43,524 nt of DNA from a bacterium (lineage in GTDB: Bacteria; Campylobacterota; Campylobacteria; Campylobacterales; Sulfurovaceae). Positions within the stretch are counted from its first letter, which is position 1, and every line of letters starts with the position of its first letter. Under the pieces are notes generated by a model that ran no database searches, was not told the DNA's origin, and saw only the letters and a list, made by a program, of their open reading frames with translations. Shown here in pieces: positions 1-34,359 of the stretch. The stretch spans positions 1-43,524 of the forward strand of contig JAHJJU010000005.1 of NCBI GenBank assembly GCA_018822805.1, written 5' to 3'. Made by a program: the position numbers and the translations under genes.

Positions 1-331
1 GATCTATAAAAATTATCCTTTAATTATTTTTATTGTATATTTATTGGGGTTTTATAAAATAACAAAATTAAAACAAAAACCCAAATGGAATAGCATACTG
101 TTTTTATCAACATATTTTTAAAACTTATCCTTATTTTTTAATTTATTTTTTTAAGCTATATTTTAATAAAACCAGATTAAAATCCAGTTCAACGAGTAAA
201 AACTCTTAAGACTTCTTGCAATGGAAATCAAGATTCTAATCATTGATATAAACTAAATTATTAGTTACAAATGCTACTTATCCTTTAAGTAAGTGGAGAG
301 TATACTTTATAAAATGATTCAAAGGGTTATC
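1..331. other. AT-rich upstream region of the hydrogenase operon
   Basis: No credible gene is visible here. The stretch is very AT-rich. A weak interrupted stem pairs TTGGGGTTTT at about 44-53 with AAAAACCCAA at 75-84 across a long loop, and might be the end of an upstream transcript. Just before the hydrogenase gene, TATACT (301-306) inside an AT-rich run resembles a -10 box. If that is the promoter, transcription would begin near 313-315, which argues against the GTG at 293 as start codon and for the ATG at 332. No good -35 box is seen. Confidence 0.35.
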
Positions 332-8635: not shown

Positions 8636-11034
8636 AAAAAAAACAAGAAAATTATAATCAATTTAGCATAGAACTGGAAACAGCCTTAAAAGAGCATCTC
8701 TTTGATCAAGAAGATGCTGTCGAAGCCATTGTTAAAACCTTGGTTCAATCCTATATGTTAGAGAGCAAAAGTAAAGTTCAAGCACTCTTTACGTTTATAG
8801 GAGCACCCAACAGTGGTAAACATTATGCTTGTGAACTCTTAGAGAAACTTAACCCTAAAATAACGCACCTTAAAACATTTTATATGGAACAGTACAGTGG
8901 TGGAATAAATGATGAACAACCCTTTATGATGGAAGTAATAGAGTTTGTTCAAAACAATCCCTCTGCTGTTTTGGTCTTTGAAGATATTGAAAAGGCTGAC
9001 TTACAAATACAACTGGCACTCTATACGCTCTTTACCGATTATGAGAAAAATGAAGTTGACTTTTCTAGGAGTGTCGTGATTGTTACCACAACACTGTTGT
9101 CTGCTTTACTGCAACGAAAAGATGTACAAAAACTTCTTAAAAGTGACCCTTTACAAGCCCATACTTTTTTAATCGAGCATTTGGCCAAAGAACAGGTCAT
9201 TGTAGAAGAGAGCATGGACATGGCTTTTGATAAAAAGTTACTCTCACTTCTTAATGAACACACACTGGTGACCTTTAATAGGTTAAGTTTAAAAGCCCTT
9301 ATTAAAATAGGAGCCAGGTCTCTGCATCAGATGTCTCAAGCCTTTAGCAAAAAAAATGATGTTGCCATAGAGTATAGAGAGTTTGATGCTTTTATTTCAC
9401 TCTTAACCCTCTCTTTAGCCCCGTATCTCAATGCTAGGCACATTAAACAGAAAATTCCAAAATTGATGTTTAATCATATTTATGACCTGTTAAAATCGCA
9501 TGAGCATGTAGAGAAAATTCAATATGAGGTATCTGAAAAAGCAAAACAGTTTCTAAAAAAACTCTTAGAAGATGAACAACTCTTTTTAAAAAAAATAACC
9601 AGACAGCATAAACATATCAGTTTAAAGTGGGATATTGTCGTTCATGAAAATGAAGTTCAATGTAGTATTAAAAGTTTGTTTTATACCCAAGAGAAATTAA
9701 GTATATCCTCCCATGAAGATATGCATATTTCAGATATTCAATTTAAAGATATTGCCGGTCATATTAAAGTTAAAGAGGAATTAACGGAGATAGTCACCCT
9801 ACTAAAAGAGCCGAAACGATTAAAAAAATTTGATTTGGCTGTGCCTAAAGGAATGATTCTTTATGGTCCGGAAGGAATGGGTAAAAAACTCTTAGCAAAA
9901 GCCTTTGCCAGTGAAGCCAATATGCCCTATGTGGTGGTGAATGGTTCTGATTTGTTTACAGCAAAAAACATTCATCAAGCGTATGCACAAGCTTACCGTT
10001 CAGCTCCTGCCATTGTAATTTTAGAAGACATTGATATTCAAGGTATTGTGGGTGGAGTTATCTCAACCATGAGTGTTGAACCCATTATCGAAGAATTGGA
10101 TGCCCTACATCAGAGTTTTGATGCTCCTATATTTACGATTATAACCCTCAGTAGCAGTGCTGAAATTCCAGAAACTCTTCTTGAAGTCAATAGAATCAAC
10201 ATTCATATAGAAGTACCCAAACTGGATATGGAAGCTCGAACCTTTTTCATTAAAGAGATTCTTAAAAAACCCCATGATAAAACTATAGATGTACAAAGAA
10301 TTGTCCGATACATCTCTGGGATGGGTGGGAATGAGCTCAAAAGAATTGGTCAAGAAGCCTCATTGTTTGCTGCACGAAAAGGCTTAAAAATGTTAACCGA
10401 AGAGATACTTTTAGAGCAAATCAACATTATAAAATACGGTACAAAATTGGAAAACAAGCACATTCGTGATATTGAGATATCGATGTCAAAAACAGCCTAT
10501 CATGAAGCCGGTCATGCCGTTTTATCCTACCTACTTTTACCAAAAATTAAAATCGAACAGGTCACCGTAGCCCCACGAAGTGAGGCTCTTGGATTTGTCT
10601 CGTATCATAACGATGACTACATTGATGCGACCTCAAAAGAGGATCTGTTTAACGATATTTGTGTGCTTTTAGCAGGTAGGATTGCCAAAATGCACAAGTA
10701 TGGAGAAGACGGTATGGAGACAGGAGCCATGAGCGACCTTGAAGTGGCTACCACACAAGCTTATGCTGCCATTGCACTTTTTGGAATGGATGAAGAGCTG
10801 GGGTACATCAACATCTCCGGTTTGGATGTAGGAGGGATGAACCCCATATTAAATCACAAGATAGAAGAACGCATCTTGGTTTGGATAGAGAGAGCCACCC
10901 AAAAAACCGAAAAAGAAGTAAAACGCTTATGGAAAGCCATTGATGCCGTGGCATTGGAACTGATACAAAAAGAGATGATAGATGGGGAAGCATTAAAAAG
11001 TATTATTGAAAATAATATTCCTTCTATTAAATAG
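8632..11034 (+). CDS. Soluble double-AAA+ protein with FtsH-type M41 zinc-protease domain
   Basis: The C-terminal half is clearly FtsH-like. It has an FtsH/Cdc48-type AAA module starting near residue 375 (FKDIAGHIKVKEEL), Walker A GPEGMGKK (412-419), Walker B IVILED (461-466), then HEAGH (624-628) with the third zinc ligand D702 in GAMSDLEVAT. The N-terminal 250 residues resemble a ClpA/B-type AAA module, with GAPNSGKH (57-64) and VLVFED (113-118). Both Walker A motifs lack the usual Thr/Ser after Lys (H64, K419). The FtsH arginine-finger segment (normally like RPGRFDR) reads EVNRINI, and the FVG pore loop is not recognisable. There are no transmembrane helices, unlike FtsH. At 800 residues it is longer than FtsH. 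Overlap with the P-type ATPase gene by ATGA suggests a linked role, perhaps proteolytic control of that pump (inference). Confidence 0.85.
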   Translation: MKKKQENYNQFSIELETALKEHLFDQEDAVEAIVKTLVQSYMLESKSKVQALFTFIGAPNSGKHYACELLEKLNPKITHLKTFYMEQYSGGINDEQPFMMEVIEFVQNNPSAVLVFEDIEKADLQIQLALYTLFTDYEKNEVDFSRSVVIVTTTLLSALLQRKDVQKLLKSDPLQAHTFLIEHLAKEQVIVEESMDMAFDKKLLSLLNEHTLVTFNRLSLKALIKIGARSLHQMSQAFSKKNDVAIEYREFDAFISLLTLSLAPYLNARHIKQKIPKLMFNHIYDLLKSHEHVEKIQYEVSEKAKQFLKKLLEDEQLFLKKITRQHKHISLKWDIVVHENEVQCSIKSLFYTQEKLSISSHEDMHISDIQFKDIAGHIKVKEELTEIVTLLKEPKRLKKFDLAVPKGMILYGPEGMGKKLLAKAFASEANMPYVVVNGSDLFTAKNIHQAYAQAYRSAPAIVILEDIDIQGIVGGVISTMSVEPIIEELDALHQSFDAPIFTIITLSSSAEIPETLLEVNRINIHIEVPKLDMEARTFFIKEILKKPHDKTIDVQRIVRYISGMGGNELKRIGQEASLFAARKGLKMLTEEILLEQINIIKYGTKLENKHIRDIEISMSKTAYHEAGHAVLSYLLLPKIKIEQVTVAPRSEALGFVSYHNDDYIDATSKEDLFNDICVLLAGRIAKMHKYGEDGMETGAMSDLEVATTQAYAAIALFGMDEELGYINISGLDVGGMNPILNHKIEERILVWIERATQKTEKEVKRLWKAIDAVALELIQKEMIDGEALKSIIENNIPSIK

Positions 11035-16075: not shown

Positions 16076-18301
16076 ATGTTGAAAACAATTAAATACACCA
16101 TCATGATGCTGTTTGGTATGATTATACTCTTTTCCCTCCTAAACTACCTCTACCCCCTAAACACTGCACGTCTCAATAAACCCCAATCCACCCTAATTTA
16201 TGACCGTGATGAACATCTGATCACTGTGAAACTGAGTCCTGATGGATTTTTACGTATGCCCATCAAAACTCAAATGTTAACCGATGATATAAAAAAGATT
16301 GTTTTAGGGTATGAAGATCAGTATTTTGAAAAACATTTTGGGGTGAATCCTTTGGCGATTGTTCGGGCTTTGTGGTTTAATGTGACCAATCAACGTACCA
16401 TTGGGGCTTCGACCATTACCATGCAGGTGGCTCGGATGATGCACCATGAACCTCGTACACTGAAACAGAAACTCATCGAAATTTTTCAAGCCTTTCAACT
16501 CGAATGGAACTACAGCAAAGAGGAAATACTTACTTTTTATCTGAATAACGCTCCTTATGGAGGCAATGTTGAGGGGTTTGCCTCAGCTTCATTTCGCTAT
16601 TTTAATCTCTCTGTCTCTTCACTTTCACTTTCACAAATAGCCTACTTAACAAGCATTCCTAAAAACCCCAATGCCAACCGTCCCAATGCCAACCATCCTA
16701 AAAAAGGTCGCAAGATTAATCCCATTAAAAATCGTCTGCTCACACGGCTCTATGAACTGGACGTTATTACCCAAAAAGATTACCAACGTGCCATGCAAGA
16801 GCGTATAGCTGTAAAGATAAAAAACTTACCTCATAGGGTTCCTCATCTCTCTACGCAAATTAAAGAGCAAGGCGAAATACATACTACCATGGATATGCAT
16901 CTGCAAAGTCGTGTAGAGAAACTGCTTTTTAAACAAGTAAATAAACTTAAAAAGTTTGCAATTTATAATGGAGCTGCATTGGTGATAGACAATAAAAGCA
17001 TGGAGATTTTAGTCTATGTTGGTTCACACAATTTTGATGACAAAAAACATGGAGGTCAAAATGACGGGGTTAAAGCCTTAGTTTCTCCAGGTTCTACACT
17101 GAAACCCTTTGTCTATGCTAGAGCTTTAGAAGAAGGCATCATTAGCCCTCTGAAAAAACTCTACGATGTCCCTCTTTTTATAGAGGGGTATAAGCCCACC
17201 AACTACGCCAAAGAGTATTTAGGAGAAGTGACAGCGACGGAAGCATTACAGTTTTCACTCAATATTCCTGCTGTAGAACTTGACCGACTACTGGGAGAAA
17301 AAAGTCTCTATAGCCTACTACAAGAGAGTAATTTATCCTCACTCAGCAAACCAAAAGCCTACTACGGTTCAGCTTTGAGCTTGGGAGGATTTGGTATTTC
17401 ACTAAAAGATAATGCAGAACGTTTTTCCATGTTAGCCAATGGTGGTCGTTTTGAAAAAGCAACATTTTTAAAAGAAAATAGAACAAGAGAAGTGACACAA
17501 CTTTTAACAGCCCAATCAACCTACTTGGTCTCTAATATGTTGGCTGATGCCCCACGCTTAAACTTCTCTTCCTCATGGGAATACATGGAGGGAATGCCAA
17601 AGGTGGCTTTTAAAACAGGGACTTCAGCACGTGCTAAAGATATGCTCACCATTGGCTACACACCTGAATATACCGTGGCTGTTTGGTATGGGAATTTTTC
17701 AGGAAAAGCAAGTAACCCCTACAATCATACCCATGCTACAGGATTAAAAGTGGCTTCACCGACCCTTTTTAAAATTTTTAAACTGCTCGAAGAAAAAAAG
17801 AGACAAACATGGTTTAAAAAACCCCAAGGTATCTCTACACAAACCATCTGCCAAGATGCCATACAAATTAATGCATGTAAAGCACCTATAAAAGACCAAC
17901 TCATAAAAGAGGTAAAGCTAAAAACCCCCTGCTCTGCCATGCGTGCTGAAGTGCTCTCTTATCTTTTAAAAAACCAAAAAATAGAGCATTTTAAGAGCCT
18001 TAAATCTCATCGATGTTATGAGGAGTGGAAAAGCTATAAGCCCCTTATTACCAGCCCTGTTCATAACAAAAGTTATGCCCATAACCGACTACTTCCTAAT
18101 GAACTCAAAAAAACCATGTTGGAGTGTTACTCGTTTGAAGAGAACAGCACAATTTATTGGTTGATAGATAATGAAGAACCTATCGTTGGTGAATCATCTG
18201 TTCCTCTTTACCGATACTTAACGCCAGAAAAACATAGCATATCCTGTTTGGATGAAGGGGCAAAGATGCAATCGATCAGCATAATCTCTGAAGAGTTGTA
18301 A
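16076..18301 (+). CDS. pbpC: Penicillin-binding protein 1C (peptidoglycan glycosyltransferase/transpeptidase)
   Basis: This is a membrane-anchored periplasmic enzyme for peptidoglycan synthesis or repair. A single N-terminal helix (about 8-28) is followed by a GT51 glycosyltransferase domain (E80 in EDQYFEKHFG; GASTITMQVARMM). A class A transpeptidase domain follows, with S340-T-L-K343, the SLN motif (QFSLNIP) and K513-T-G. The C-terminal BiPBP-like domain runs from about 660 (PLITSPVHNKSYA) to the end. At 741 residues it is typical of PbpC. It is followed 66 bases later by a bacterial alpha-2-macroglobulin gene; the PbpC-A2M pairing is known from many Gram-negatives and suggests repair after protease or cell-wall attack. 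Confidence 0.93.
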   Translation: MLKTIKYTIMMLFGMIILFSLLNYLYPLNTARLNKPQSTLIYDRDEHLITVKLSPDGFLRMPIKTQMLTDDIKKIVLGYEDQYFEKHFGVNPLAIVRALWFNVTNQRTIGASTITMQVARMMHHEPRTLKQKLIEIFQAFQLEWNYSKEEILTFYLNNAPYGGNVEGFASASFRYFNLSVSSLSLSQIAYLTSIPKNPNANRPNANHPKKGRKINPIKNRLLTRLYELDVITQKDYQRAMQERIAVKIKNLPHRVPHLSTQIKEQGEIHTTMDMHLQSRVEKLLFKQVNKLKKFAIYNGAALVIDNKSMEILVYVGSHNFDDKKHGGQNDGVKALVSPGSTLKPFVYARALEEGIISPLKKLYDVPLFIEGYKPTNYAKEYLGEVTATEALQFSLNIPAVELDRLLGEKSLYSLLQESNLSSLSKPKAYYGSALSLGGFGISLKDNAERFSMLANGGRFEKATFLKENRTREVTQLLTAQSTYLVSNMLADAPRLNFSSSWEYMEGMPKVAFKTGTSARAKDMLTIGYTPEYTVAVWYGNFSGKASNPYNHTHATGLKVASPTLFKIFKLLEEKKRQTWFKKPQGISTQTICQDAIQINACKAPIKDQLIKEVKLKTPCSAMRAEVLSYLLKNQKIEHFKSLKSHRCYEEWKSYKPLITSPVHNKSYAHNRLLPNELKKTMLECYSFEENSTIYWLIDNEEPIVGESSVPLYRYLTPEKHSISCLDEGAKMQSISIISEEL

Positions 18302-18340
18302 TAAAAAAACAAATATAAATCATATTTTTTTACTAAATTA

Positions 18341-18349
18341 TGTTAAAAT
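18341..18349 (+). promoter_or_regulatory. Possible extended -10 element before the alpha-2-macroglobulin gene
   Basis: TG-T-TAAAAT at 18341-18349 resembles an extended -10 box and would place the transcript start near 18356, twelve bases before the ATG at 18368. There is no clear -35. If real, the macroglobulin gene has a promoter separate from pbpC. Confidence 0.25.
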
Positions 18350-18367
18350 AAAAAAAAAGAGTCTATC

Positions 18368-21300
18368 ATGTTTAAGTATCTATTACCTCTCATTTTGACC
18401 AGCCTTCTCTTTGCAGATTCATTGCAAAGTAGTCCCAAAATTGTTCCTATAGATGAACCTTTTATGCTTGAATCAGCTACAGATAAGTTTGACAGCACCC
18501 TCTCGTATACCCACACTCCTCTGCTCTCTTGTCAACCTAAACTTGACGTGGTTTACAAAGTTGAGTCGAGTAAAAAACTAAAAATTATTCCCAAAAAACC
18601 TCTACGTAGTGGCAATAATTACAGCTGTGACTATAACGGAGAAAGCTTTAGCTTTACCACCGTTCCACTGCAAGTGATGGAAGCAAACTACTTTAAAGCT
18701 GATAAACTTTTACGTTTGAGTTTTAATGATGCCATCAATTCCGACAACATCACAAAGCACATCAAATTGACAAAAATTGACAAACTCTCGAAAACCAATT
18801 TAAACTATAACATTTTACAAAATTCGGGAAAAAACATGGTTTTAAAAATCACTGAACCCGTTTTAAAAAGTACCATTGAACTCAATATTGATAAAGCACT
18901 CTCTACCCCTCATAACAGCACCCTAGAAAAAGCGTACAGTGATACATTCAATACACCCTCAAACAAAGTTACTTTAGACAAAGAAAAAAAAGCCATGATC
19001 ATTAACGATGCACCTCAAATGGTGGCACTAAAAAATGGTGAATTTGCTCTACGTATTTTTTTAAATGATACACTGGAAGGAAAAGCTGAACAAAGCATTG
19101 AAATAGAGGGAATAGAGAACTTTAAACTGCAACGAGACAACTACATCGACTATACGCTTCGAGAGCAACTGCACATTTCAGAAGAAACCTACTGGTATAC
19201 CGATGTTATTAGCTCAGAGTTCCAACCCAATACTACCTATAACGTTACTTTAAAAAAAGGGTTAAAAACCTACCGAGAACTCAAAGAGGACAAATACTAT
19301 AGCGTAAAGACGGGAGATCGAGCAAAATCCATTATATTTTCTGGTGATAAAAACTACATCTCAAACAGTGGAGAGTTAGGATTCTCTTCGGTGAATGTTG
19401 ACCATGCCACGCTAATAGTAGAGCGTCTACTCGATGACAACTTACGTTACTTTATGAATTTCAACCAAAGCAAAACAGAAGACATTCATGCCTATACTCA
19501 AGAGGTATTTACCAAGGAATTAACACTCAATAATGAAAAAAACACCCTATTAAAACAGAAATTCTCACTTAAAGATTTGGGTTCGGAACTTCCTTATGGT
19601 GTTTACAATATTACCCTACGTTATAATGAAAAACTCAAAGATGAAAGCAAGGAGTATGCCTCATCAAAGGTGCTCTTTTTATCCAATTTAGGAATTTCAC
19701 TTAACCTTGCAAAAGAGCAAGCTTTTGTGACCGTACTCTCTTTAGACAAAGCTCAACCTCTCTCCTCTGCAACAGTTGAACTTTATGGTCAAAACAATGC
19801 CCTTATAGGCACAGCCACCACCAATAAAGATGGCGTTGCCATTATAGAGAAAGAACATCTATTGGAATCTAAACCTAAAGGGGTCATTGTCAAAACCTCT
19901 AAAGACAAAAACTTTTTGGCTCTAAATCAACAGTTTTTGTCTCCTGATCCGAAATACATTTTAAGAGAGCAAGAGCGTTTTAGAGCTCATGTTTATTTTC
20001 AAAGTAAGTTGGTTCGTCCTGCCGGTAAAATTCATGCACTCATTACCATTAAAGATCGTGACTTTATATCTGCCAATAAATTACCTATAAAATTGCTCTT
20101 TAGAGAGCATTACGGTAAAACCCTGCATGAAAAAGTCTACCACAGTGATGAGTTTGGATTAATTGATTTTAGCTACCAAATGGAGAGAGAGGACAGAACG
20201 GGAACCTATGAACTTTTAGCCTTTATTGGTGAAAAAGAAATTGGTCGTGAAACAATTAAAGTAGAAGCCTTTATGCCTCCAAAAATAGAAAACAGCATTC
20301 ATACCAACAAAGAGATTTATCAAGAGGGTGAATTAATAGAGTTGCACATTAGCTCTTCGTACCTCTTTGGGGCTCCCTCTTCAGGACTCAACGGTACAGT
20401 TACCCTTGATGCTATGCCTTTAGACTTTGAGCACGACGCGTTCAAAAACTACACCTTTTCCAACGCTGAACTCTTGGAAAAGAATGTTCAATCTTATTTA
20501 AATGGCTTTGAGCCTTTTACCCTCAATGAAGAGGGAAAATATACGCTCGTTTTGCCTACAAAAGTGCAACAAAAAGTTCCTTCAATTTTAGAAGCAATGA
20601 TTGGGGTAACTGTGATGGATGACACCCAACCTGTTTCCAACTATAAAAATATAAAAATCTATCCTTATACACATATGGTAGGATTAAAAATCAATAAAAA
20701 CTCTTTTGAAAAAGGACAAAAGTTAGAAGGAAAAGCTGTACTGATTGACCCTATAACAGGGGAGTTAATTCAACGTCAGCTCTATGCTGTTGTTAAAAAA
20801 ATTAATTGGCAGTATGACTACAGTGATGGAAACTACAATTGGCAAAAAGAGACCACAGTCGTTGACAACTTTAGCCTCAACTCCAATGAAACTTTTAGCC
20901 GAGACATTCATGACAATGGGGACTACATCTTAGAAGTTCATGACCATTTTGGTGGACACAGTGCCAGCAGTGCTTTTGATGTTTGGTGGTGGTCCTACTC
21001 GAACATCTCACCCAAAAATGATTTAAAATCGGTAGAAATCAACATTGAAGATAAACTCTACCAAAAAGGGGACGAACTGGAAGTGAGCATTAAGTCTCCT
21101 ATTATAGAAGGTCAACTGATGTTAACCCTAGAATCTGAAAAAGTAGAACTCTATAGACGGATTACACTCGAAAAAGGTGTGGCTAAAATCAAACTGCCTA
21201 TAAACTTTGACATGCAACATGGATTACATCTTCATGCCACAGCTATTAGAGCTTCAGATACACCATCACAACTGATTCCGTTTAGGGCCATGGGGTACAA

Positions 21301-24073
21301 ATTTATCAAACCAAACCGTAATGAGCATAAAATTGACGTTAAAATTGACGCTCCAAAAGTAAGCAAGTCTAAAACCTCATCGGTACTCAAAATTAGCACT
21401 TCTAAACCCTCTAAAGTCTTGGTCAGCATTGTAGACAAAGGGATCCTCCAACTTTCCGAGCAGAAAAAACCCGAAATTTTTGACTTTTTTAATGAACCTA
21501 CCGAAAAACAACTCAGCTATTACGATCTTTATGATCAACTCATGAGTTACATTGCCGAGGGTAAATTGATTGACTTTGGGGCAGATGGTACTTTGGCTAT
21601 GCGTGCCAAACACTTGCCTCCGGATTTAGGAAAACGGGTTAAACCATTTATGCTTTGGTCAGGGATTATTGATCTTAGTTCCAAAGAGAAAAGCATCACC
21701 ATTGATATTCCGGAGTTTAACGGTCGTGCTGCCCTTGTTGCCATCGCGATTAATGAGAACAGTATCGGAGTTCAAGAAGAAGAGATGACCATAAAAGATG
21801 ATGTAATGCTAAAACCATCGTACCCAAAATATGCCTTGGCTGGTGATAGCATAGAGGTTCCTCTACGAATATTTAACACCACGAACGTACCTAAAACTGT
21901 TAGCCTTAGTTCTAAGCTCTCTAAAAATCTCGCCTTTACACTCAAAGAAGAGAGCCTTACCATTCCGGCCAACAGTTCAGCCGTTGTTGAGACGATGCTC
22001 TATGCCAATGAAGTAGGCAAAGGGCTCATTACACTCTATGCTTACTTTAAAAACAAAAAAGGAGAAAATGAAAAAGTAAGCAACACTCTTGAGCTTCCTA
22101 TTTACAATCCTCATGCCATTTCAACCAAAACATTTAAAGGCATCTCCAACACAACTCAAACCTTTACAGCACCCAAAGCGTACAATGATGCAAAAGTTTT
22201 TATAACACTTTCAAATAACCTTGTGGGTGCCTTGAGAGATGATTTAAAATACTTGGTTCAATACCCTTATGGTTGTGCTGAACAGACCTCTTCTCAACTC
22301 TTGGCCATGCATTATGCTAAAGCCTTTTTAGAAAAAGATGTATTGGTAGGTGAGAGTGAAAACTTTATTCGTCAAGGGGTTAAAAAACTTCAGAACATGC
22401 AAAACTATTACGGTGAGTTTTACTACTGGGCAGAAGGGAATCATGTGAATGCCTACGCTTCACTCTATGCTGCACAAACCCTACTAGAACTGCAACGTGA
22501 TGGTACAGATATGGCAACAAGCTTTGTAAAAAAAATAACCACCATGCTCAATGCCATTGCTTCAGCTAATGGAAGTTACGAAGGCACCTACAGTAATTTC
22601 CACCGTCTCTACGCTGCCTTTATTTTAGCAGAGCATAAAACCTTAGAGGAGAGTACAGCCAACATGCTTTATGAACAAGGGATTTATAAAAAACACTTTT
22701 TAAGTAAACTCTATATGGCTGCCATTTTAAAAATGCAAGGAAAAGTAGACGAGGCAAACAGACTCTATAACGAAAACAGCAATGACTTAGCTCAATATAC
22801 ACATAAAGCATATGGAAACACTACAGGTAATTTTGAATCCAATGTGCGTGACATGTTCTTACACTTTATCATTAAAACGGCTTATTTTAACAAAGAAGCC
22901 AAAGATTTGGTGAGTATTCAAAAAGAGTTTAGTAACCTCTACTCTACCCAAAGTAAAGCTGTAGCACTTAAAGCCATCAGCCTTTATCTCGGTAAACCTC
23001 AAAACTCGAAACTCGATGTTGATGTCGAGGTGAATGAACAAAAAGAGAACCATACCAAACCTCAGACCATTACTTTAGATAAACTCAGCAGTCAAAAGAT
23101 TCGTCTCACACCTCTCTTGGCTGCCATGAGCTACAACATTGAGTTGGTTAAACATCTGCCACGAGCTCTAAAAAACGAACTCTCTAAAACCAAAGAGCTC
23201 AGTATCATGCGTGAGTTTATCGATACCAATGGAGAGAAGGTACAACTCGATAATCTGCGACAAGGGAATACCATCTACTCTAAAGTCACCCTCGCCAACT
23301 ATGGAGAGATCAACCAAGTAGTGGTGAGCCAAAGAGTTCCGGCTTGTCTTTCAATAGTCAACAGCAACATTCACGACCAACAATCGAAATTTAAAAATGA
23401 AAACATACAGCAAGAATATCGAGAAATTCTCGATGATAGAGTCCTAAATTTCATCAATCTGAAGAAAAAAGAGAAGTACGACAAAAAACTTAAAAAGCAT
23501 ATCTCTCTTCAAAACAGAGGAGTTATCTATACCCCTTTAATGGTCACAACCGTAGGAGAGTGTCTACTCCCGGCAGTCATTAGTGAAGCGATGTACGATA
23601 CACGTATCAACGACTATGCCAAAGAGACCGAAAGTATAGTCGTACAACCAATACCAAACACAAAGCCAAAATCAGCCATTCCTAAAATAACCCAACAGAT
23701 GCTCAACTCTCAAGCAGCATCATTGGTGCGTTCGCTCTACACCAAAGAGATGAGCAGTCAGCATCCCGAAGATTTTGTACACTTTTTCAACTACCCTATA
23801 CCTACCTACTATCGGAGTAAAAATGCCACAAAAGAGATGGTTCTAAAGGATAAAGAAGCGTATTTTAAAAATTGGTCCAAACGACTCTATAAAAATATCA
23901 AAATTGAGATAGTTGGTTCCAATGAAGAAGAGAAAGAGGTACGTGTAAAAATTATCTTTGATTATCTGCTCAATAATGGAGAAAATGAGTTAAACGGAAA
24001 AAGCCAACACCTCTTAACCGTGAAAGAGATCAATGGAAAACTTTTAATTACAAAAGTGGAATTGGCAAAGTAG
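18368..24073 (+). CDS. Bacterial alpha-2-macroglobulin (thioester protease trap)
   Basis: This is a giant periplasmic protein of 1901 residues. It has an N-terminal signal peptide (hydrophobic to about residue 15, cleavage near LFA-DS), a string of beta-rich macroglobulin domains, MG/ANA-type segments in the middle, and an intact thioester motif GCAEQ with C1303 and Q1306. An alpha-helical thioester domain and receptor-like C-terminal domains follow. The thioester should covalently trap attacking proteases, and the neighbouring pbpC would repair the wall. Unlike the E. coli YfhM type, no lipobox cysteine follows the signal, so the protein is predicted to be free in the periplasm. An additional domain of about 130 residues at the C-terminus (about 1769-1901) has the alternating helix/strand look of an NTF2/SnoaL-like fold. 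That part is inferred. Confidence 0.9.
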   Translation: MFKYLLPLILTSLLFADSLQSSPKIVPIDEPFMLESATDKFDSTLSYTHTPLLSCQPKLDVVYKVESSKKLKIIPKKPLRSGNNYSCDYNGESFSFTTVPLQVMEANYFKADKLLRLSFNDAINSDNITKHIKLTKIDKLSKTNLNYNILQNSGKNMVLKITEPVLKSTIELNIDKALSTPHNSTLEKAYSDTFNTPSNKVTLDKEKKAMIINDAPQMVALKNGEFALRIFLNDTLEGKAEQSIEIEGIENFKLQRDNYIDYTLREQLHISEETYWYTDVISSEFQPNTTYNVTLKKGLKTYRELKEDKYYSVKTGDRAKSIIFSGDKNYISNSGELGFSSVNVDHATLIVERLLDDNLRYFMNFNQSKTEDIHAYTQEVFTKELTLNNEKNTLLKQKFSLKDLGSELPYGVYNITLRYNEKLKDESKEYASSKVLFLSNLGISLNLAKEQAFVTVLSLDKAQPLSSATVELYGQNNALIGTATTNKDGVAIIEKEHLLESKPKGVIVKTSKDKNFLALNQQFLSPDPKYILREQERFRAHVYFQSKLVRPAGKIHALITIKDRDFISANKLPIKLLFREHYGKTLHEKVYHSDEFGLIDFSYQMEREDRTGTYELLAFIGEKEIGRETIKVEAFMPPKIENSIHTNKEIYQEGELIELHISSSYLFGAPSSGLNGTVTLDAMPLDFEHDAFKNYTFSNAELLEKNVQSYLNGFEPFTLNEEGKYTLVLPTKVQQKVPSILEAMIGVTVMDDTQPVSNYKNIKIYPYTHMVGLKINKNSFEKGQKLEGKAVLIDPITGELIQRQLYAVVKKINWQYDYSDGNYNWQKETTVVDNFSLNSNETFSRDIHDNGDYILEVHDHFGGHSASSAFDVWWWSYSNISPKNDLKSVEINIEDKLYQKGDELEVSIKSPIIEGQLMLTLESEKVELYRRITLEKGVAKIKLPINFDMQHGLHLHATAIRASDTPSQLIPFRAMGYKFIKPNRNEHKIDVKIDAPKVSKSKTSSVLKISTSKPSKVLVSIVDKGILQLSEQKKPEIFDFFNEPTEKQLSYYDLYDQLMSYIAEGKLIDFGADGTLAMRAKHLPPDLGKRVKPFMLWSGIIDLSSKEKSITIDIPEFNGRAALVAIAINENSIGVQEEEMTIKDDVMLKPSYPKYALAGDSIEVPLRIFNTTNVPKTVSLSSKLSKNLAFTLKEESLTIPANSSAVVETMLYANEVGKGLITLYAYFKNKKGENEKVSNTLELPIYNPHAISTKTFKGISNTTQTFTAPKAYNDAKVFITLSNNLVGALRDDLKYLVQYPYGCAEQTSSQLLAMHYAKAFLEKDVLVGESENFIRQGVKKLQNMQNYYGEFYYWAEGNHVNAYASLYAAQTLLELQRDGTDMATSFVKKITTMLNAIASANGSYEGTYSNFHRLYAAFILAEHKTLEESTANMLYEQGIYKKHFLSKLYMAAILKMQGKVDEANRLYNENSNDLAQYTHKAYGNTTGNFESNVRDMFLHFIIKTAYFNKEAKDLVSIQKEFSNLYSTQSKAVALKAISLYLGKPQNSKLDVDVEVNEQKENHTKPQTITLDKLSSQKIRLTPLLAAMSYNIELVKHLPRALKNELSKTKELSIMREFIDTNGEKVQLDNLRQGNTIYSKVTLANYGEINQVVVSQRVPACLSIVNSNIHDQQSKFKNENIQQEYREILDDRVLNFINLKKKEKYDKKLKKHISLQNRGVIYTPLMVTTVGECLLPAVISEAMYDTRINDYAKETESIVVQPIPNTKPKSAIPKITQQMLNSQAASLVRSLYTKEMSSQHPEDFVHFFNYPIPTYYRSKNATKEMVLKDKEAYFKNWSKRLYKNIKIEIVGSNEEEKEVRVKIIFDYLLNNGENELNGKSQHLLTVKEINGKLLITKVELAK

Positions 24074-27579: not shown

Positions 27580-27757
27580 GTAGTAATCCTTAAAGTATAT
27601 TATATTATAAGTAATATAATAAAACAATAACAAACATTAAAGAGAAAAAATAGCAAAATACCTCACTACTCTGTTAAACGATTAAACTCCGTTCATTTAA
27701 CGATGCTTATAAACAAACTTTATGTATAATAACACAAAAATAATTGAAGGATATTTG

Positions 27758-28255
27758 GTGAGAAAATTTTTAATGCTTTTACTATCACTTGGTTTTCTCT
27801 CATGTAGTGATAATGAACCGACAGAAGAGACAACTTTAAGCAAAACAAACAATCACCCTTCAATAAACAAATCTACCAACCTGGTCAATAATAGTAACGG
27901 TGTAATATACAGCAACTATGCAGAAGCATTTAAAACAGCCAAAGCAGAAAACAAAGCTGTTTTTATTCTCTTTGCTACAGAGTATTGTCGCTGGTGTACA
28001 AAACTTAAACAAACAACGTTAAAAGATCCAAAAATTGTATCTCGTTTAGCTAAAGAATACGTGGTTTTATTTTTAGACAGAGATAAAAGTACTTATCCCT
28101 CAAAATATCGTGTAAAAGGTGTTCCGGCTGTCTATTTTACCGATAAAAATGAAGAAATTTTCACCTCAATGGTTGGCTACCATAAAGATCCACAAGACTA
28201 CATCAAATGGTTCAACTACATCCAAGTTGAATTGGAAAACACTCAATCTAATTAG
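27758..28255 (+). CDS. Thioredoxin-like lipoprotein
   Basis: The likely start is GTG at 27758, with GAAGG seven bases upstream; an ATG 36 bases earlier gives a poorer signal peptide. The N-terminus VRKFLMLLLSLGFLSC is a lipoprotein signal with lipidated Cys16, followed by a Ser/Thr/Asn-rich linker. The thioredoxin fold begins around residue 50 and has the active site C77-R-W-C80 and the cis-proline region GVPAVYF. Such proteins act in periplasmic thiol-disulfide exchange (SoxW or thioredoxin_7-like). The gene ends by overlapping the stop of the convergent HycG/NuoB-like gene. Confidence 0.8.
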   Translation: MRKFLMLLLSLGFLSCSDNEPTEETTLSKTNNHPSINKSTNLVNNSNGVIYSNYAEAFKTAKAENKAVFILFATEYCRWCTKLKQTTLKDPKIVSRLAKEYVVLFLDRDKSTYPSKYRVKGVPAVYFTDKNEEIFTSMVGYHKDPQDYIKWFNYIQVELENTQSN

Positions 28256-28764
28256 ATCTCAAGTGTCTCTATGTACGCTAATAATCCTTGCAGAAGCTTT
28301 TTGGGTTCAGGTGGACAACCTGCAATATGATACGCCGTAGAACAATGAATACTACTTTCACCTTTCAGTGCAAACGTATTTTTAAAGGGTGCATGAAAAA
28401 GAGGACAATCTCCAATAGCAATAACCCGTTTAGGCTCTTTTAATACTTTATACTTCTGCATACAATGATGATACATATTTTCCGTTAACAATCCTGTCAT
28501 TAACATGATGTCTGCCTCTCGAACATCATAAACAACTTCCACACCCAATTTAGAAACATTATACAAAGGATTAAAAAGACCCTGTAACTCAAGTTCACAA
28601 GCTGTACATGACCCTGTATCAATAATGTAAAGTTTAAGTTTAGAAGAGAATTTTGCTTTTATTGCTTCTTTCAATCTTTGTTGTAACGTTAATAATACAT
28701 CATCAATCAGAGGTTTGCTCAGGGCACGTTGGCGATTTTTCTCATTTTTTAATAATTTTAACAT
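28252..28764 (-). CDS. HycG/NuoB-like [4Fe-4S] small subunit
   Basis: This 170-residue protein is related to the small subunit of group 4 hydrogenases and to NuoB of complex I. The core has the cluster motif SCTACELEL (C-x2-C as in hydrogenases, not the adjacent CC of NuoB), then IAIGDC and IAGCPPEP, giving four Cys for an N2-like [4Fe-4S] cluster. The N-terminal 40 residues are a basic helix. It follows the HycE-like gene by 11 bases and so is cotranscribed with it. No membrane antiporter subunits or ferredoxin subunit are next to it. Its electron partner is unknown. Confidence 0.82.
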   Translation of the reverse strand: MLKLLKNEKNRQRALSKPLIDDVLLTLQQRLKEAIKAKFSSKLKLYIIDTGSCTACELELQGLFNPLYNVSKLGVEVVYDVREADIMLMTGLLTENMYHHCMQKYKVLKEPKRVIAIGDCPLFHAPFKNTFALKGESSIHCSTAYHIAGCPPEPKKLLQGLLAYIETLEI

Positions 28765-28775
28765 CTCTTTTCTCT

Positions 28776-30131
28776 CTATAAATCATTTGCTGAAAAGCTT
28801 AAAGGAACACTCTTTATAATCAGACCTAAACTAGAAACTTCATTACCTTTAAGACATTCAGAAAGCACTTGGGCATTTAAAAAACTTGGATCTCGAACAA
28901 AAAAACGGTCTATCTTTCCCTCTTTTAATGCAACATACATCATCAATTCACCAGCACTACTCTCAACATATGAGTAATATTCACCATTCATAACCGTACC
29001 TAAGAAAAAAGGTAAATTATGGTTTGGGAACAACTTTCTCATAATACGAATAGAACTGTAAATTTCAGTCAGTCTAATTTTAAAACGTGCAGCACTATCT
29101 CCTGTATCTTCGCTAGAGATATAAAAATCACTTTGGGTATAAAGCTTATTTTGCATTCGTCGGTCTAATCCAATATCTACACTGCGTGCCATAATACCAA
29201 CAAGACCATAAGAGAGGGTATCCTCCTTGCTAAGTTGACCTACTTCTATTAAGCTATTCCAAAATGAAGGAATAGCCTTTATCCATGTTTCAAACCAAGC
29301 AAGTTCTTTTTCTAGATAAAATAAAAAATCATAACAAGCATCTGTCTCTATAAAATTGGTATTTGGATTTACGGCATCAAAACCAAAACGATGTCCGGTT
29401 AAATCTCTCATCACTGCTCTACCTTGCTCTACCAATTTCATAAAAAAATATGAACCTTCTGAAAAATCAGCAAATTGTGACATCACAGCTAAATCATAAA
29501 GATGATTAATAATTCTCTCCAACTCCAATAAAAATATATGTCGCTGTTTTACAATTTTAGGAAGTTCTTTTTTGGCTGCTTGTAGTTGTATATTTAAATA
29601 AGCTGTCTGATAAGCGATACTCATGTTTCCGGAAATTCGCTCAACGATGGGTTTAGCATCATCCAGAGTAAGCCCTTCTAACATCTTTTCAATCCCTCTG
29701 TATTTATAAAAAGGCATTGTTTCAAAGTGCAAGATTTCATAATTACGATCAAAAAGTTGAAATTGAGAGGAGTCTAAATGGTAAGGGTGTGTGGGACCTA
29801 AAATAACTCCATGATTCTCATTCACAGGTTTACTGTCTTCTACTACAGATTCTATTGATACTTTTCTGTAGCTTTTTCGCATGGGGTAGAGATTTTTAGG
29901 AAAGTGTTCATGTTTGAGAAGTGGACGTTTGTCATTACTGTACAATATCTCAATACCAAAATCATCCGTAATCTTACGTTCAAACCACAGAGCTGTAGGA
30001 TACTCATGAGCGATGGATACCAAAGCAGGAGTTATTTTATTAATTCTCTCTTTGACCACTCGAAGATCATAAACAGTAATAATTTCAAAACATTCTTCCT
30101 GTTCTTGGGCAAATCTGGCTATAAGTCTCAT
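28776..30131 (-). CDS. HycE/NuoCD-like large subunit lacking Ni-Fe cysteine ligands
   Basis: The first part (about 1-90) is like the 30-kDa NuoC domain (LWFERKITDDFGIEI, then RPLLKHEHFPKNLYP). The rest is like the 49-kDa/HycE catalytic subunit (LGPTHPYHLDSSQFQLF, FYKYRGIEKMLEG, a long helix region, GHRFGFDAVNPN). Where hydrogenases have RICGICS, this protein has RISGNMS (29619-29639), and the C-terminal DPCxxC is DPSFLN. It therefore cannot bind a Ni-Fe centre in the standard way. The start is probably ATG 30131; the frame continues to a TTG at 30146. No good ribosome site is seen. It lies 42 bases after a coiled-coil regulator gene and is followed by the HycG-like gene. It resembles energy-converting hydrogenase-related (Ehr) proteins or complex I rather than a hydrogenase. 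Confidence 0.8.
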   Translation of the reverse strand: MRLIARFAQEQEECFEIITVYDLRVVKERINKITPALVSIAHEYPTALWFERKITDDFGIEILYSNDKRPLLKHEHFPKNLYPMRKSYRKVSIESVVEDSKPVNENHGVILGPTHPYHLDSSQFQLFDRNYEILHFETMPFYKYRGIEKMLEGLTLDDAKPIVERISGNMSIAYQTAYLNIQLQAAKKELPKIVKQRHIFLLELERIINHLYDLAVMSQFADFSEGSYFFMKLVEQGRAVMRDLTGHRFGFDAVNPNTNFIETDACYDFLFYLEKELAWFETWIKAIPSFWNSLIEVGQLSKEDTLSYGLVGIMARSVDIGLDRRMQNKLYTQSDFYISSEDTGDSAARFKIRLTEIYSSIRIMRKLFPNHNLPFFLGTVMNGEYYSYVESSAGELMMYVALKEGKIDRFFVRDPSFLNAQVLSECLKGNEVSSLGLIIKSVPLSFSANDL

Positions 30132-30173: not shown

Positions 30174-30842
30174 TTATTGTAATTTATTAAGTATATCTTC
30201 ATAATAATGATAGCAGCTCAAATAGATCTCATCATTTTCTACTTTTATTCTTCTATCTGCATTCATATGTGCTTTTTTTAATCGCTTGACTACTTTAATT
30301 TTTTGCTTTTCTTTAAAAATATTTGAATGTTCAAAAAATTCATCAAGTGTAATCCAACACTCCTCTTCATCATTGGGAATTTTCTCTACAGCGATAACTT
30401 CTTCTTTTATACGATTAAGATGATATTTATTTTCTAATTCAAGTCTTTTTTCAGTACTCATGTAATCTACCTGTTTCACATAAAGATTACGCATCTCAGT
30501 AAAAACTTGTTTAAGCAGTTCGATCTCTCCACGTAATGTTGTATTGATTTCAGTATTGGTCTGTTTTAGATCTGATATGCTCTCTTTTAAAACAGAGATG
30601 GTCTGTTCTTTGGAATTTAGAAGCTCTTGTACATCGATCAAATGAGGAGCCCTTTGTACGCTCTCTATCACCTCTGGCTCTTTCGTCTCTAATCTTGAAT
30701 TTAACTCTTTTTCTAATATAATGTAAATTTTACCATCAATTGTTTTTGATGGCAAAAGACCTTTTTTTATTTTTGCATAAACAGCCTGCCGTGATATTCC
30801 TTCTGATTTTGCATACTCTATAGGCTTAACCAATCTACTCAT
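30174..30842 (-). CDS. Helix-turn-helix coiled-coil protein, possible regulator
   Basis: The 222-residue protein begins with a short helix-turn-helix of MerR/excisionase type (VKPIEYAKSEGISRQAVYAKIKKG), followed by a wing-like strand. Residues about 75-140 are a long Leu/Glu/Lys-rich coiled coil. The C-terminal part (about 160-222) is another compact domain (EECWITLDEFFEHSNIFKEKQ...), reminiscent of DUF3972-type Campylobacterota proteins. No enzyme motif is seen. AAAGG lies upstream of the ATG. It is just upstream of the HycE/HycG-like pair on the same strand, so it may be cotranscribed with or regulate that pair. Confidence 0.6.
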   Translation of the reverse strand: MSRLVKPIEYAKSEGISRQAVYAKIKKGLLPSKTIDGKIYIILEKELNSRLETKEPEVIESVQRAPHLIDVQELLNSKEQTISVLKESISDLKQTNTEINTTLRGEIELLKQVFTEMRNLYVKQVDYMSTEKRLELENKYHLNRIKEEVIAVEKIPNDEEECWITLDEFFEHSNIFKEKQKIKVVKRLKKAHMNADRRIKVENDEIYLSCYHYYEDILNKLQ

Positions 30843-31041: not shown

Positions 31042-31995
31042 TTAGATTCTTGCTTCTTCTCTTCTTTGAAGAAGATCCCACTTCGCATCAACATCTTTTT
31101 GAACTTGTTCAATGATGTGTCTATACTGAGGTTTAAAGAGGTGTTTATAACGCCCTTGAGATGCCATATACTCTTCTACTGAGATAACATTTTTTGGTCT
31201 GTAAAGAATGTTAAGCTCATGTCCATCAATAATCTCATAGATTGGGAACATGAGTGAATCTGTTGAAAGATCCGTAATACCAATGGTATCTTTTGGATCA
31301 AATTTCCACTCTGTACAACATGGAGAAACCGTGTTAATGAAACATGGTCCTTCAGTCTCTAAAGCTTTTTGAAAACCTTTTGCCATGATTTTCCATTTGT
31401 TTGGAGCCAACTGTGCAACATACGGAGCACCATGAGCAGCCATAATAGAAACAATGTCTTTTTTCTTCTCTTTTTTACCGTAAGAGTGTGTACCAGCAAC
31501 GGATGTTGAAGTTGTTGCACCAACCGGTGTAGCAGAAGATCTTTGTCCACCTGTATTTGCATAATTTTCGTTATCTAGACAAATATACGTAAAGTCATGA
31601 CCTCTTTCCATTGCCCCTGATAACCACTGGAAACCAATATCAAAAGTAGAACCATCACCACCAAATGCCACAAATTTAACTGGTGCATCGTTGTCTTTAA
31701 GTCTACCTTTTTTCTTTCTTACTTTATGCATTACTTCTGCACCTGTAACAGCAGTAGCAGCATTTTCAAAACCAATATGAATCCAAGATGTATCCCATGA
31801 TGTAAATGGATAAACAGCTGTTGATACTTCCAAACAACCTGTGTTTGCAGCAACAACAAGGTTGTCATCTGTACAGTTCATTAACTCTCTAACAATCATA
31901 GAGTGAGCACAACCGGGACAGAGGGTATGTGCACCCTCAAATCTGTCATTATTTGTCGAGAACTCTTTTAAGTTCTTTATTGATGTAATTGCCAT
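31042..31995 (-). CDS. porB: Pyruvate:ferredoxin oxidoreductase beta subunit (TPP-binding)
   Basis: Together with PorA, PorC and PorD this makes the enzyme that interconverts pyruvate + CoA and acetyl-CoA + CO2 with ferredoxin or flavodoxin; in autotrophs it can run in the CO2-fixing direction. The beta subunit carries the TPP motif GDGSTFDIG, with the downstream NENYANTGGQRSSATP segment. It also has the Cys set for a [4Fe-4S] cluster (LCPGCAHSM, the later NTGCLEVS, and SPCCTEW). Length is 317 residues, normal. It is the last gene of the operon and is followed by a strong hairpin. It starts 3 bases after porA ends. Confidence 0.95.
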   Translation of the reverse strand: MAITSIKNLKEFSTNNDRFEGAHTLCPGCAHSMIVRELMNCTDDNLVVAANTGCLEVSTAVYPFTSWDTSWIHIGFENAATAVTGAEVMHKVRKKKGRLKDNDAPVKFVAFGGDGSTFDIGFQWLSGAMERGHDFTYICLDNENYANTGGQRSSATPVGATTSTSVAGTHSYGKKEKKKDIVSIMAAHGAPYVAQLAPNKWKIMAKGFQKALETEGPCFINTVSPCCTEWKFDPKDTIGITDLSTDSLMFPIYEIIDGHELNILYRPKNVISVEEYMASQGRYKHLFKPQYRHIIEQVQKDVDAKWDLLQRREEARI

Positions 31996-31998
31996 ATT

Positions 31999-33234
31999 TT
32001 AGCTCCTATCTGTTTGAAAAAATCCAAGTTTTGGACCTCTAAGTCCTGAAAACTGTTGGATGTCTGTTGTAATGTATCCAGCGTCAGCGTGTGCTTGTTG
32101 CTCTGTAAATATTCTTTTTGCCTCTTCAATTGAGAAGTCACGACCACCAAGACCATAAACAAAACCTGTCACCAATGGTCTATTTTTAGACGTGTACATG
32201 GCTGCCGATACTTCATTGTAGAATGCACCCATTGCACCACCTGGAGATGAACGATCCGTTACAGCAATAGATTTAGCATTTTTCAACGCTTCTCTAACTT
32301 CATCGTAAGGGAACGGTCTGAAACATCTAATCGCCACAACACCTGCTTTAATTCCTGTTTCAGCTCTAAGTTCTCTAGCTGCTACTCTTGCCGTCTCAAC
32401 CGTTGTTCCAAGACCAATAATAACAACATCAGCATCTTCCATATCATAAGACTCAACTCTCTTATATTCTCTACCTGTAAGCTCTTTAAACTCAGTAAAT
32501 ACGTCATCAATTACCGAACGTGAATCCATAATCGCTTTATGCTGTTTTGCTTTATGTTCAAAGTGCCAATCTTCCTCTGTTTGTGCACCATAAGTAACCG
32601 GTCTAGAGAAGTCAAGCATATCATCTACAGGTACAATCTCCCCTACAAATTTCTTTGCAGCTTCATCGGTTAATGGATAAACATTTTGTGCTGTATGGGA
32701 AGTAATAAATCCATCTTGATGAACCATAACAGGAAGTCTTACTGAATGATTTTCAGCGACTCTAAATGCACACAATGCAAGGTCATACGCCTCTTGTGCA
32801 TTAAATGCACCAAATTGAATCCAACCTGAATCACGTCCAAGGTACATATCAGCATGGTCACCACGTACGTTCAGTGGAGAAGCCAATGCTCTGTTTACAA
32901 CGTTTAATACAATTGGAAGTCTCATACCGGATGCTTGGTAAAGCACCTCTGCCATGAGTGCAAAACCTTGTGAAGATGTTGCTGTTGAAACACGTCCACC
33001 GGAAGCTGAAGCACCGATACATCCTGACATAGCAGCATGTTCAGACTCAACCATAACGAACTCTCCGTCAATATAACCATTTCCTACATATGAACCATAG
33101 TTCTCAACAATTGGAGTTGATGGCGTAATAGGATAAGCTACAACAACATCTACATCAGCTTGTCTTAAAGCTTGAGAAGCAGCATAGTTACCGTCCCAAA
33201 CTTCTCTTTCATTTAAATCAAATTTTACAGCCAT
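31999..33234 (-). CDS. porA: Pyruvate:ferredoxin oxidoreductase alpha subunit
   Basis: The alpha subunit contains the pyrimidine-binding part of the thiamine fold and the transketolase C-terminal-like domain. Recognisable segments are YPITPSTPIVENYG near the N-terminus, FVMVESEHAAMSGCIGASASGGRVSTATSSQG, the VNRALASPLNVRGDHADMYLGRDSGWIQFGA region and the C-terminal IRCFRPFPYDEVREALKNAKSIAVTDRSSPGGAMG. At 411 residues it is complete. It overlaps the stop of porD by one base. Confidence 0.96.
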   Translation of the reverse strand: MAVKFDLNEREVWDGNYAASQALRQADVDVVVAYPITPSTPIVENYGSYVGNGYIDGEFVMVESEHAAMSGCIGASASGGRVSTATSSQGFALMAEVLYQASGMRLPIVLNVVNRALASPLNVRGDHADMYLGRDSGWIQFGAFNAQEAYDLALCAFRVAENHSVRLPVMVHQDGFITSHTAQNVYPLTDEAAKKFVGEIVPVDDMLDFSRPVTYGAQTEEDWHFEHKAKQHKAIMDSRSVIDDVFTEFKELTGREYKRVESYDMEDADVVIIGLGTTVETARVAARELRAETGIKAGVVAIRCFRPFPYDEVREALKNAKSIAVTDRSSPGGAMGAFYNEVSAAMYTSKNRPLVTGFVYGLGGRDFSIEEAKRIFTEQQAHADAGYITTDIQQFSGLRGPKLGFFQTDRS

Positions 33235-33704
33235 TATGCTTCCTCACTTTTTTTCTCTTTTTTCTTTTTCTCAGGCCATGAAGCTAAAGACTCTTCTAAG
33301 TCAGCATGTTCATTAAACATAAGAAGTGATTTTGGATTGGTAGGGCAAACTTCTACACAAACTTCACATCCTTTACAATGATCATAATCAATTCCTAACA
33401 TCTGTTTATCTCTTGATAAGATAGATGAATCCGGACACCATACCCAACAGTTTTGACAATCAATACAGATGTCTCTGTTAAATACAGGTTTAATTACTCT
33501 CCATGAAGCAACAGTAGCTGTGTACGAGTTGTATCCTGAATATGTTCTCTCTTCAGCTTTCATGTTGGCAATACCTGTTGCATCACCATCAAATGAAGGA
33601 AGAACAGAACCTTGTGTCACTTCATCCCATCCAAGTAAATCAAAACCGGCTTCAAGTTGGCTTCTACCTCTATTGTCATTAGCTAATAATTTTAAATCTT
33701 GCAT
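33234..33704 (-). CDS. porD: Pyruvate:ferredoxin oxidoreductase delta subunit (2x[4Fe-4S] ferredoxin)
   Basis: This 156-residue electron-transfer subunit has two [4Fe-4S] motifs, CIDCQNCWVWCP and CKGCEVCVEVCPTNP, near residues 77-125. The N-terminal 70 residues are an extension seen in Campylobacterota PorD. The C-terminus is a Lys/Glu-rich tail. It lies between porC (12 bases upstream) and porA (1-base overlap) in the order gamma-delta-alpha-beta. Confidence 0.95.
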   Translation of the reverse strand: MQDLKLLANDNRGRSQLEAGFDLLGWDEVTQGSVLPSFDGDATGIANMKAEERTYSGYNSYTATVASWRVIKPVFNRDICIDCQNCWVWCPDSSILSRDKQMLGIDYDHCKGCEVCVEVCPTNPKSLLMFNEHADLEESLASWPEKKKKEKKSEEA

Positions 33705-33716
33705 TGTCGCTCCTCT

Positions 33717-34280
33717 CTACTTAACTTCGTTATAGGCTCTGGTAATTGCAGCCATGTTTCCATCAATAATTTTTTGAGGGAATTTAGCCAATACTCTAGC
33801 CATATTTTCTAAAAAATAATCCAATTCAAACATACCTGAAACCTTAACAAAAGCACCAAGCATTGGTGAGTTTGGAATAGATCTACCAATAGTATCTAAA
33901 GAGATTTGAACACAGTCAACGGTGAACACTCTATCTTCTTTCCCGGCCAATGCAGGGATTCCGGTAATAAGCTCTTCTTTAGAGAGGTGTGTCGTAATAA
34001 TATACTTAGTTGACTCTTTTTCATTTACTTCAATATTATCTGTAAATGCCAATGCAGGGTCAATAACCAAAACATAATCAGGATTCATAAATTTTGCGTG
34101 ATTAAAAATTTGTTCATCAGAAATTCTGTTATATGCTCTAAGAGCAGCCCCTCTTTTTGCAGAACCATAAAGTGCAAATGCCTGTACTTCTTTTCCTGTA
34201 GTTGCTACAACGTCACCTAAACCTTTAGCACCCGATACTGCACCTTGTCCAGCACGGCTGTGCCATCTTATTTCTGTCAT
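33717..34280 (-). CDS. porC: Pyruvate:ferredoxin oxidoreductase gamma subunit
   Basis: The gamma subunit starts MTEIRWHSRAGQGAVSGAKGLG, the family hallmark glycine-rich segment, and ends in a helix typical of PorG/PorC proteins. The ATG at 34280 has AGGAG six bases upstream; the frame is open 45 bases further but without a ribosome site. It is the first gene of the operon, with a -10 box at 34365-34360 on the minus strand. Confidence 0.94.
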   Translation of the reverse strand: MTEIRWHSRAGQGAVSGAKGLGDVVATTGKEVQAFALYGSAKRGAALRAYNRISDEQIFNHAKFMNPDYVLVIDPALAFTDNIEVNEKESTKYIITTHLSKEELITGIPALAGKEDRVFTVDCVQISLDTIGRSIPNSPMLGAFVKVSGMFELDYFLENMARVLAKFPQKIIDGNMAAITRAYNEVK

Positions 34281-34359
34281 GACTTCTCCTATCTTTTTAT
34301 CTATTATGAAGTATTGTAATCTCACCTCTCTTAAAAGGTCTTCATACTTACTAAAAAAA

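What the first reader, a model, noticed from the sequence alone, without database searches (positions are those of the whole stretch)
28252..30131. Orphan HycE/HycG-like pair without Ni-Fe ligands or membrane subunits
The large subunit has RISGNMS and DPSFLN in place of the two CxxC motifs, yet the small subunit keeps all four Cys of its cluster. No antiporter-like, ferredoxin or membrane subunits surround them, only a coiled-coil HTH gene. A soluble pair from the complex I/Ehr family might do chemistry or electron transfer on an unknown substrate, or act as a regulatory sensor.
Basis: partly seen in the sequence, partly recalled or inferred. Interest (0 to 1): 0.7.

Follow-up and report, generated by a model that had tools for sequence, protein, structure and literature searches.

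The report
Hydrogenase-like pair without membrane pump
Some Sulfurovum bacteria keep two subunits of an old energy-converting membrane machine after losing its membrane pump, its metal site and the loops that joined the two, so the leftover pair has probably become a small soluble iron-sulfur protein of unknown use.

Summary
The pair is real and intact. It derives from EhrL/EhrS, the large and small subunits of the Ehr complex (energy-converting-hydrogenase-related). In other Campylobacterota these genes sit in a six-gene operon with two antiporter-like subunits, a NuoH-like subunit and a HyfE-like subunit. In the window and five other Sulfurovum genomes the pair stands alone, at one chromosomal locus, and no EhrB-like gene was found in those genomes. 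The window genome (99.8% complete) holds only complex I membrane subunits. The six pairs form one clade (bootstrap 100), have no frameshifts and are under purifying selection. They keep the four small-subunit Cys and every invariant residue of the NuoC-like assembly domain. They have lost residues that the sampled membrane-bound relatives keep in the beta1-beta2 loop, the NDUFS7 loop and the C-terminal canopy. Most likely it is a soluble one-[4Fe-4S] redox module; its partner or substrate is unknown. The HTH gene is a syntenic neighbour, not a dedicated partner. Verdict: new variant of a known kind.

The parts
28776..30131 (-). EhrL-like large subunit (451 aa from ATG; NuoC-like + NuoD/HycE-like domains), no Ni-Fe ligands
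28252..28764 (-). EhrS-like small subunit (170 aa) with four conserved cluster Cys (C53, C56, C120, C150)
30174..30842 (-). HTH/coiled-coil DUF3972-like gene; resident of the locus, present without the pair in relatives; not shown to be a partner
31042..34325 (-). Pyruvate:ferredoxin-oxidoreductase-type genes (four ORFs) upstream; adjacent in window and L067 only among the orphan loci; possible but unproven source of reduced ferredoxin
   Evidence: enzyme name from general knowledge of the gene order and motifs, not searched
27722..28255 (+). Convergent exported thioredoxin-like gene; also present where the pair is absent; neighbour, not a part

Best explanation
The pair is a membrane-less derivative of the Ehr complex: EhrL and EhrS whose relatives work on a NuoH/antiporter membrane arm and whose own lineage has no such arm. 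Shown: relationship, absence of the arm, changed docking loops and pocket residues, retention of cluster ligands and of the NuoC-like domain, purifying selection. Inferred: the two proteins form a soluble cytoplasmic heterodimer with one [4Fe-4S] cluster that cannot pump ions and serves as a redox module, exchanging electrons with an unknown soluble protein partner or small substrate, the partner docking on the side of the conserved NuoC-like domain. Confidence: about 0.85 for the descent and the absence of a membrane arm, about 0.4 for the redox-module role; the figure below is for the whole statement.
For: Six-gene operon A-B-C-D-L-S in relatives versus lone L-S in six Sulfurovum genomes; EhrB profile absent from all six orphan genomes, found in 3 of 3 controls; window genome has only complex I PF00361/PF00146 genes. 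Orphans one clade, bootstrap 100. Of EhrL columns invariant in membrane forms, 9 of 13 in the beta1-beta2 loop and 9 of 19 at the C-terminus are lost in all orphans, 0 of 18 in the NuoC-like domain. Canopy Asp: D in 28/28 membrane Ehr, P in 6/6 orphans. EhrS more conserved than EhrL in 324/325 membrane pairs, less in 15/15 orphan pairs. dN/dS 0.14-0.35 for EhrL and 0.15-0.47 for EhrS where computable, dS near saturation. The two changed loops belong to the catalytic/membrane interface in FHL (PMC9474812); soluble MBS subcomplexes reduce polysulfide at the proximal cluster (PMC7684303).
Against: Solubility, cluster content and redox activity are not measured. Five of the six genomes are incomplete MAGs, G100 so much so that even complex I antiporters are missing from it. 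G095 and G114 have one further PF00361 gene of unknown setting. The NDUFS7-loop enrichment alone is not significant (p=0.10), and the column tests ignore relatedness. A role without electron transfer (scaffold, regulator) fits the same data.
Confidence: 0.5

Rival explanations
1. Soluble catalyst: a small substrate (for example polysulfide) is reduced at the proximal [4Fe-4S] cluster in the former active-site cavity, as in MBS.
For: Cluster ligands kept; Ni-Fe and several pocket residues gone; MBS shows cluster-based sulfane reduction without Ni-Fe, and its soluble subcomplex is active (PMC7684303); Sulfurovum lives on sulfur compounds (general knowledge).
Against: In MBS one cluster Fe lacks Cys coordination; here the four Cys are all conserved. 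No sulfur-metabolism gene is tied to the pair across loci.
Confidence: 0.2
2. Redox or gas sensor acting through a partner such as the adjacent HTH protein.
For: HTH gene sits 15-45 bases upstream in the same direction in four of six orphans; sensory hydrogenases exist as soluble pairs (general knowledge).
Against: HTH gene is conserved at the locus without the pair in many genomes and is missing next to it in L067 and L045, with no match to it anywhere in those two (incomplete) genomes.
Confidence: 0.15
3. The pair docks on another membrane arm of the cell, such as complex I NuoH/NuoLMN, as an alternative input module.
For: Complex I membrane arm is present in the window genome; folds are alike.
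Against: Both interface loops, including the S/N-P-R/K-H/Q-A/S-D segment shared by the Hyf, Ech-like and complex I relatives compared, are changed in all six orphans.
Confidence: 0.08
4. Decaying relic without function.
For: Fast divergence (52-73% identity between orphan EhrL) beside strongly conserved neighbours such as prfA and the ferredoxin-oxidoreductase alpha and beta genes; patchy presence with empty sites in relatives.
Against: Six of six pairs intact; dN/dS well below 1; cluster Cys and the NuoC-like domain invariants kept in all; many columns fixed within the orphan clade.
Confidence: 0.05

Closest known systems
Ehr complex (EhrA-D, EhrL, EhrS; Geobacter sulfurreducens GSU0739-45; complete operons in Campylobacterota here)
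   Same: Homologous large and small subunits, 38-46% identity to the Campylobacterota operons; no Ni-Fe Cys; four small-subunit Cys
   Different: No EhrA-D membrane subunits; beta1-beta2 loop, NDUFS7 loop and canopy Asp changed in all six orphans
Formate hydrogenlyase HycE/HycG (group 4 [NiFe] hydrogenase)
   Same: HycE layout with fused NuoC-like domain, best structural match; CxxC arrangement in small subunit
   Different: All Ni-Fe Cys replaced; no HycB/HycF ferredoxins, HycC or HycD
MBS sulfane sulfur reductase (MbsL/MbsJ)
   Same: Ni-Fe-free redox core built on the same fold; precedent for cluster-based chemistry in a soluble subcomplex
   Different: MBS has antiporter and anchor subunits, further clusters, and two retained Cys in MbsL; cluster coordination here unknown
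Complex I NuoB/NuoCD
   Same: Fold; loss of Ni-Fe Cys
   Different: CxxC rather than the adjacent Cys pair of cluster N2, no quinone Tyr equivalent in the L1 region by alignment, no membrane arm

Membership tests
Ehr complex | Large and small subunits homologous to EhrL/EhrS | tested here: met
   38-46% identity and common clade with operon-borne Campylobacterota sequences; Geobacter sequences not compared
Ehr complex | Lacks the Ni-Fe-coordinating Cys | tested here: met
   definition from PMC6349859
Ehr complex | Antiporter-like and NuoH-like membrane subunits | tested here: not met
   Absent at the locus and not found elsewhere in the window genome apart from complex I
Group 4 [NiFe] hydrogenase | Two CxxC motifs binding Ni-Fe in the large subunit | tested here: not met
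   RISGNM and VPLSFSA at those positions
Complex I (NuoB/NuoCD) | Adjacent Cys pair of cluster N2 in the small subunit | tested here: not met
   C-x-x-C (C53, C56); the complex I-type sequence L113 has CC there
MBS sulfane reductase | Proximal cluster with one non-Cys-coordinated Fe | not testable with these tools
   Needs structure or EPR; four candidate Cys are conserved
Any of the above | Fe-S cluster actually bound by the small subunit | not testable with these tools
   Inferred from conserved Cys only

The most novel reading that the evidence does not exclude
A branch of the complex I/Ehr superfamily that shed both its metal site and its whole membrane arm and was redeployed as a soluble one-cluster enzyme or sensor with a reaction not yet known for this superfamily.
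Probability: 0.35. Interest if true: 0.7.

Novelty: new variant of a known kind. Interest (0 to 1): 0.5.

Why it matters
The redox reaction of Ehr complexes is unknown. A two-protein version without the membrane arm would be a small, purifiable object in which to ask what the Ni-Fe-free pocket and its cluster can do. Comparing forms with and without the arm separates residues needed for membrane coupling from those needed for the redox core, which bears on how complex I-type machines couple electrons to pumping.

Tried and rejected
A first genome-contig scan with one protein found nothing; the alignment scan worked. HTH as dedicated partner: not favoured, since it occupies the locus without the pair. 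Hidden EhrB elsewhere: not found. Decay: no frameshifts, low dN/dS. Plasmid records hold only distant relatives; the best five listed are 26-29% identical. In one search the 'orphL' query was translated from the wrong strand and its numbers are ignored. The neighbour-gene tree has too much missing data to decide between one gain with several losses and exchange at the locus. The first EhrL structure job failed and was repeated; the model has pLDDT under 50 at residues 93-141 and 447-451, which include the beta1-beta2 loop and the C-terminus, but no control model of a membrane-bound EhrL was made, so this is not used as evidence. Mutual exclusion of orphan and complete operons within the genus (6 and 6 of 34 genomes, none with both) is too few to mean anything.

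Full report
Observation. The window carries, on the minus strand, a large subunit (28776-30131 from ATG) and a small subunit (28252-28764), 11 bases apart. Pfam gives Complex1_30kDa plus Complex1_49kDa for the large and Oxidored_q6 for the small subunit. The closest solved relatives by sequence are E. coli HycE, and MbhJ and HycG. AlphaFold models (mean pLDDT 81 and 82) match HycE and HycG best. Residue numbers below follow the 456-aa ORF (subtract 5 for the ATG start). The first Ni-Fe motif is replaced by RISGNM.

What it is. Searches of 100 family genomes, 34 genus genomes and 397 phylum genomes found close homologues at about 38-62% identity. Titled records name the genus as Sulfurovum. Outside six Sulfurovum genomes the pair is preceded by membrane genes: antiporter-like EhrA (about 627 aa), NuoH-like EhrB (306), a multi-pass protein of about 197 aa (EhrC/HyfE-like) and antiporter-like EhrD (471), in the order A-B-C-D-L-S. 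By my count EhrD lies beside EhrL in 47 non-orphan genomes and in two more (L039, L066) the contig ends there. This matches the gene content reported for the Ehr complex of Geobacter (PMC7894505); Ehr complexes are defined as group 4-related complexes without the Ni and Fe ligands (PMC6349859).

The orphan form. In the window and five other genomes (L067, L045, L044, L068, L069) no membrane genes accompany the pair. A profile of EhrB finds nothing in these six genomes and finds the gene in three of three controls. In the window genome (99.8% complete) all PF00361 and PF00146 matches belong to the complex I contig. G095 and G114 each have one further PF00361 gene of unknown setting, with no counterpart in the window genome. 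The orphans form one clade with bootstrap 100, sister to the membrane-linked Campylobacterota sequences sampled; Ehr from other phyla were not included.

Locus history. In the window the order is: ferredoxin-oxidoreductase-type genes, HTH, [EhrL, EhrS], thioredoxin-like gene, Ig-like gene, rpsT, prfA. The other orphan loci share parts of this order. In several relatives the slot is empty: in L117 and L118 the HTH gene abuts the thioredoxin-like gene. The HTH and ferredoxin-oxidoreductase genes are therefore residents of the locus. Supply of reduced ferredoxin by a neighbour remains possible but is not shown.

What was lost and kept. Of 149 EhrL columns at least 95% invariant in membrane forms, 70 are kept by all orphans and 41 lost by all. 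Losses are concentrated in the beta1-beta2 loop (9 of 13 such columns, p=0.0013) and, more weakly, the C-terminus (9 of 19, p=0.04), and are absent from the NuoC-like domain (0 of 18). In EhrS the NDUFS7 loop changes from ASPRHAD to sequences that share only the final AD (5 of 11 invariant columns lost in all; p=0.10 on its own). These tests treat columns as independent and are not corrected for the several regions looked at. [quoted passage not shown] The canopy Asp (HycE D529) is D in 28 of 28 membrane Ehr and P in 6 of 6 orphans; the equivalents of H284, E437 and R395 are kept; all Ehr here lack the canopy Arg. The four small-subunit Cys are kept throughout. EhrS is more conserved than EhrL in 324 of 325 membrane pairs but less so in 15 of 15 orphan pairs, as expected if constraint from the membrane interface was removed; pairs are not independent. 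dN/dS is 0.14-0.35 (EhrL) and 0.15-0.47 (EhrS) where computable, with dS near saturation.

How it probably works. Inference: a soluble heterodimer with one [4Fe-4S] cluster that exchanges electrons with a soluble partner or small molecule and is not coupled to ion pumping. The NuoC-like domain, which governs assembly in HycE and NuoCD (PMC7050243), keeps all its invariant residues, suggesting that a protein contact on that side persists. Precedent for chemistry without Ni-Fe is MBS, where the proximal cluster reduces sulfane sulfur and soluble subcomplexes are active (PMC7684303). Whether electron transfer, catalysis or sensing applies is not decided by this evidence.

Membership. It is related to Ehr and shares its Ni-Fe-free pocket, but fails the membrane-arm feature, so it should not be filed as an Ehr complex. 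It is not a [NiFe] hydrogenase and not a complex I module by the tests listed.

Limits. Five of the orphan genomes are incomplete MAGs. Searches of open-access papers turned up no description of such a pair in the titles, abstracts and passages I read, which is weak evidence of novelty.

Noticed in passing
window 293-4416 (+): One 818-aa ORF appears to fuse an FAD-dependent oxidoreductase with a [NiFe]-hydrogenase small subunit (PF01058 at 1973-2416), followed by a large subunit with intact RICGVC and DPCLAC motifs.
   Followed up: no
L041-L060 and others (complete Ehr operons): Campylobacterota Ehr operons carry a uniform Ni-Fe-free pocket signature (SGNES, KS[CF]DLSYAG, adjacent His pair) and no ferredoxin-type subunit, in at least 47 genomes; their redox partner is unknown.
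   Followed up: partly
L113 (G095:C53): An orphan-carrying genome also holds a complex I operon that, from gene sizes and Cys content, appears to include nuoE/F/G-type subunits, unlike the operon of the window genome.
   Followed up: no
window 8632-11034 (+): 800-aa AAA protein with a HEAGH metalloprotease motif directly after a P-type ATPase gene (5909-8635).
   Followed up: no
G095:C55:9288-10157 and G114:C13:123724-124593: One further antiporter-like PF00361 gene (541-547 aa frames) in two orphan genomes, not in the window genome.
   Followed up: no
window 16076-24073 (+): PBP1C-like gene followed by a 1901-aa alpha-2-macroglobulin-like gene; names from general knowledge, not searched.
   Followed up: no
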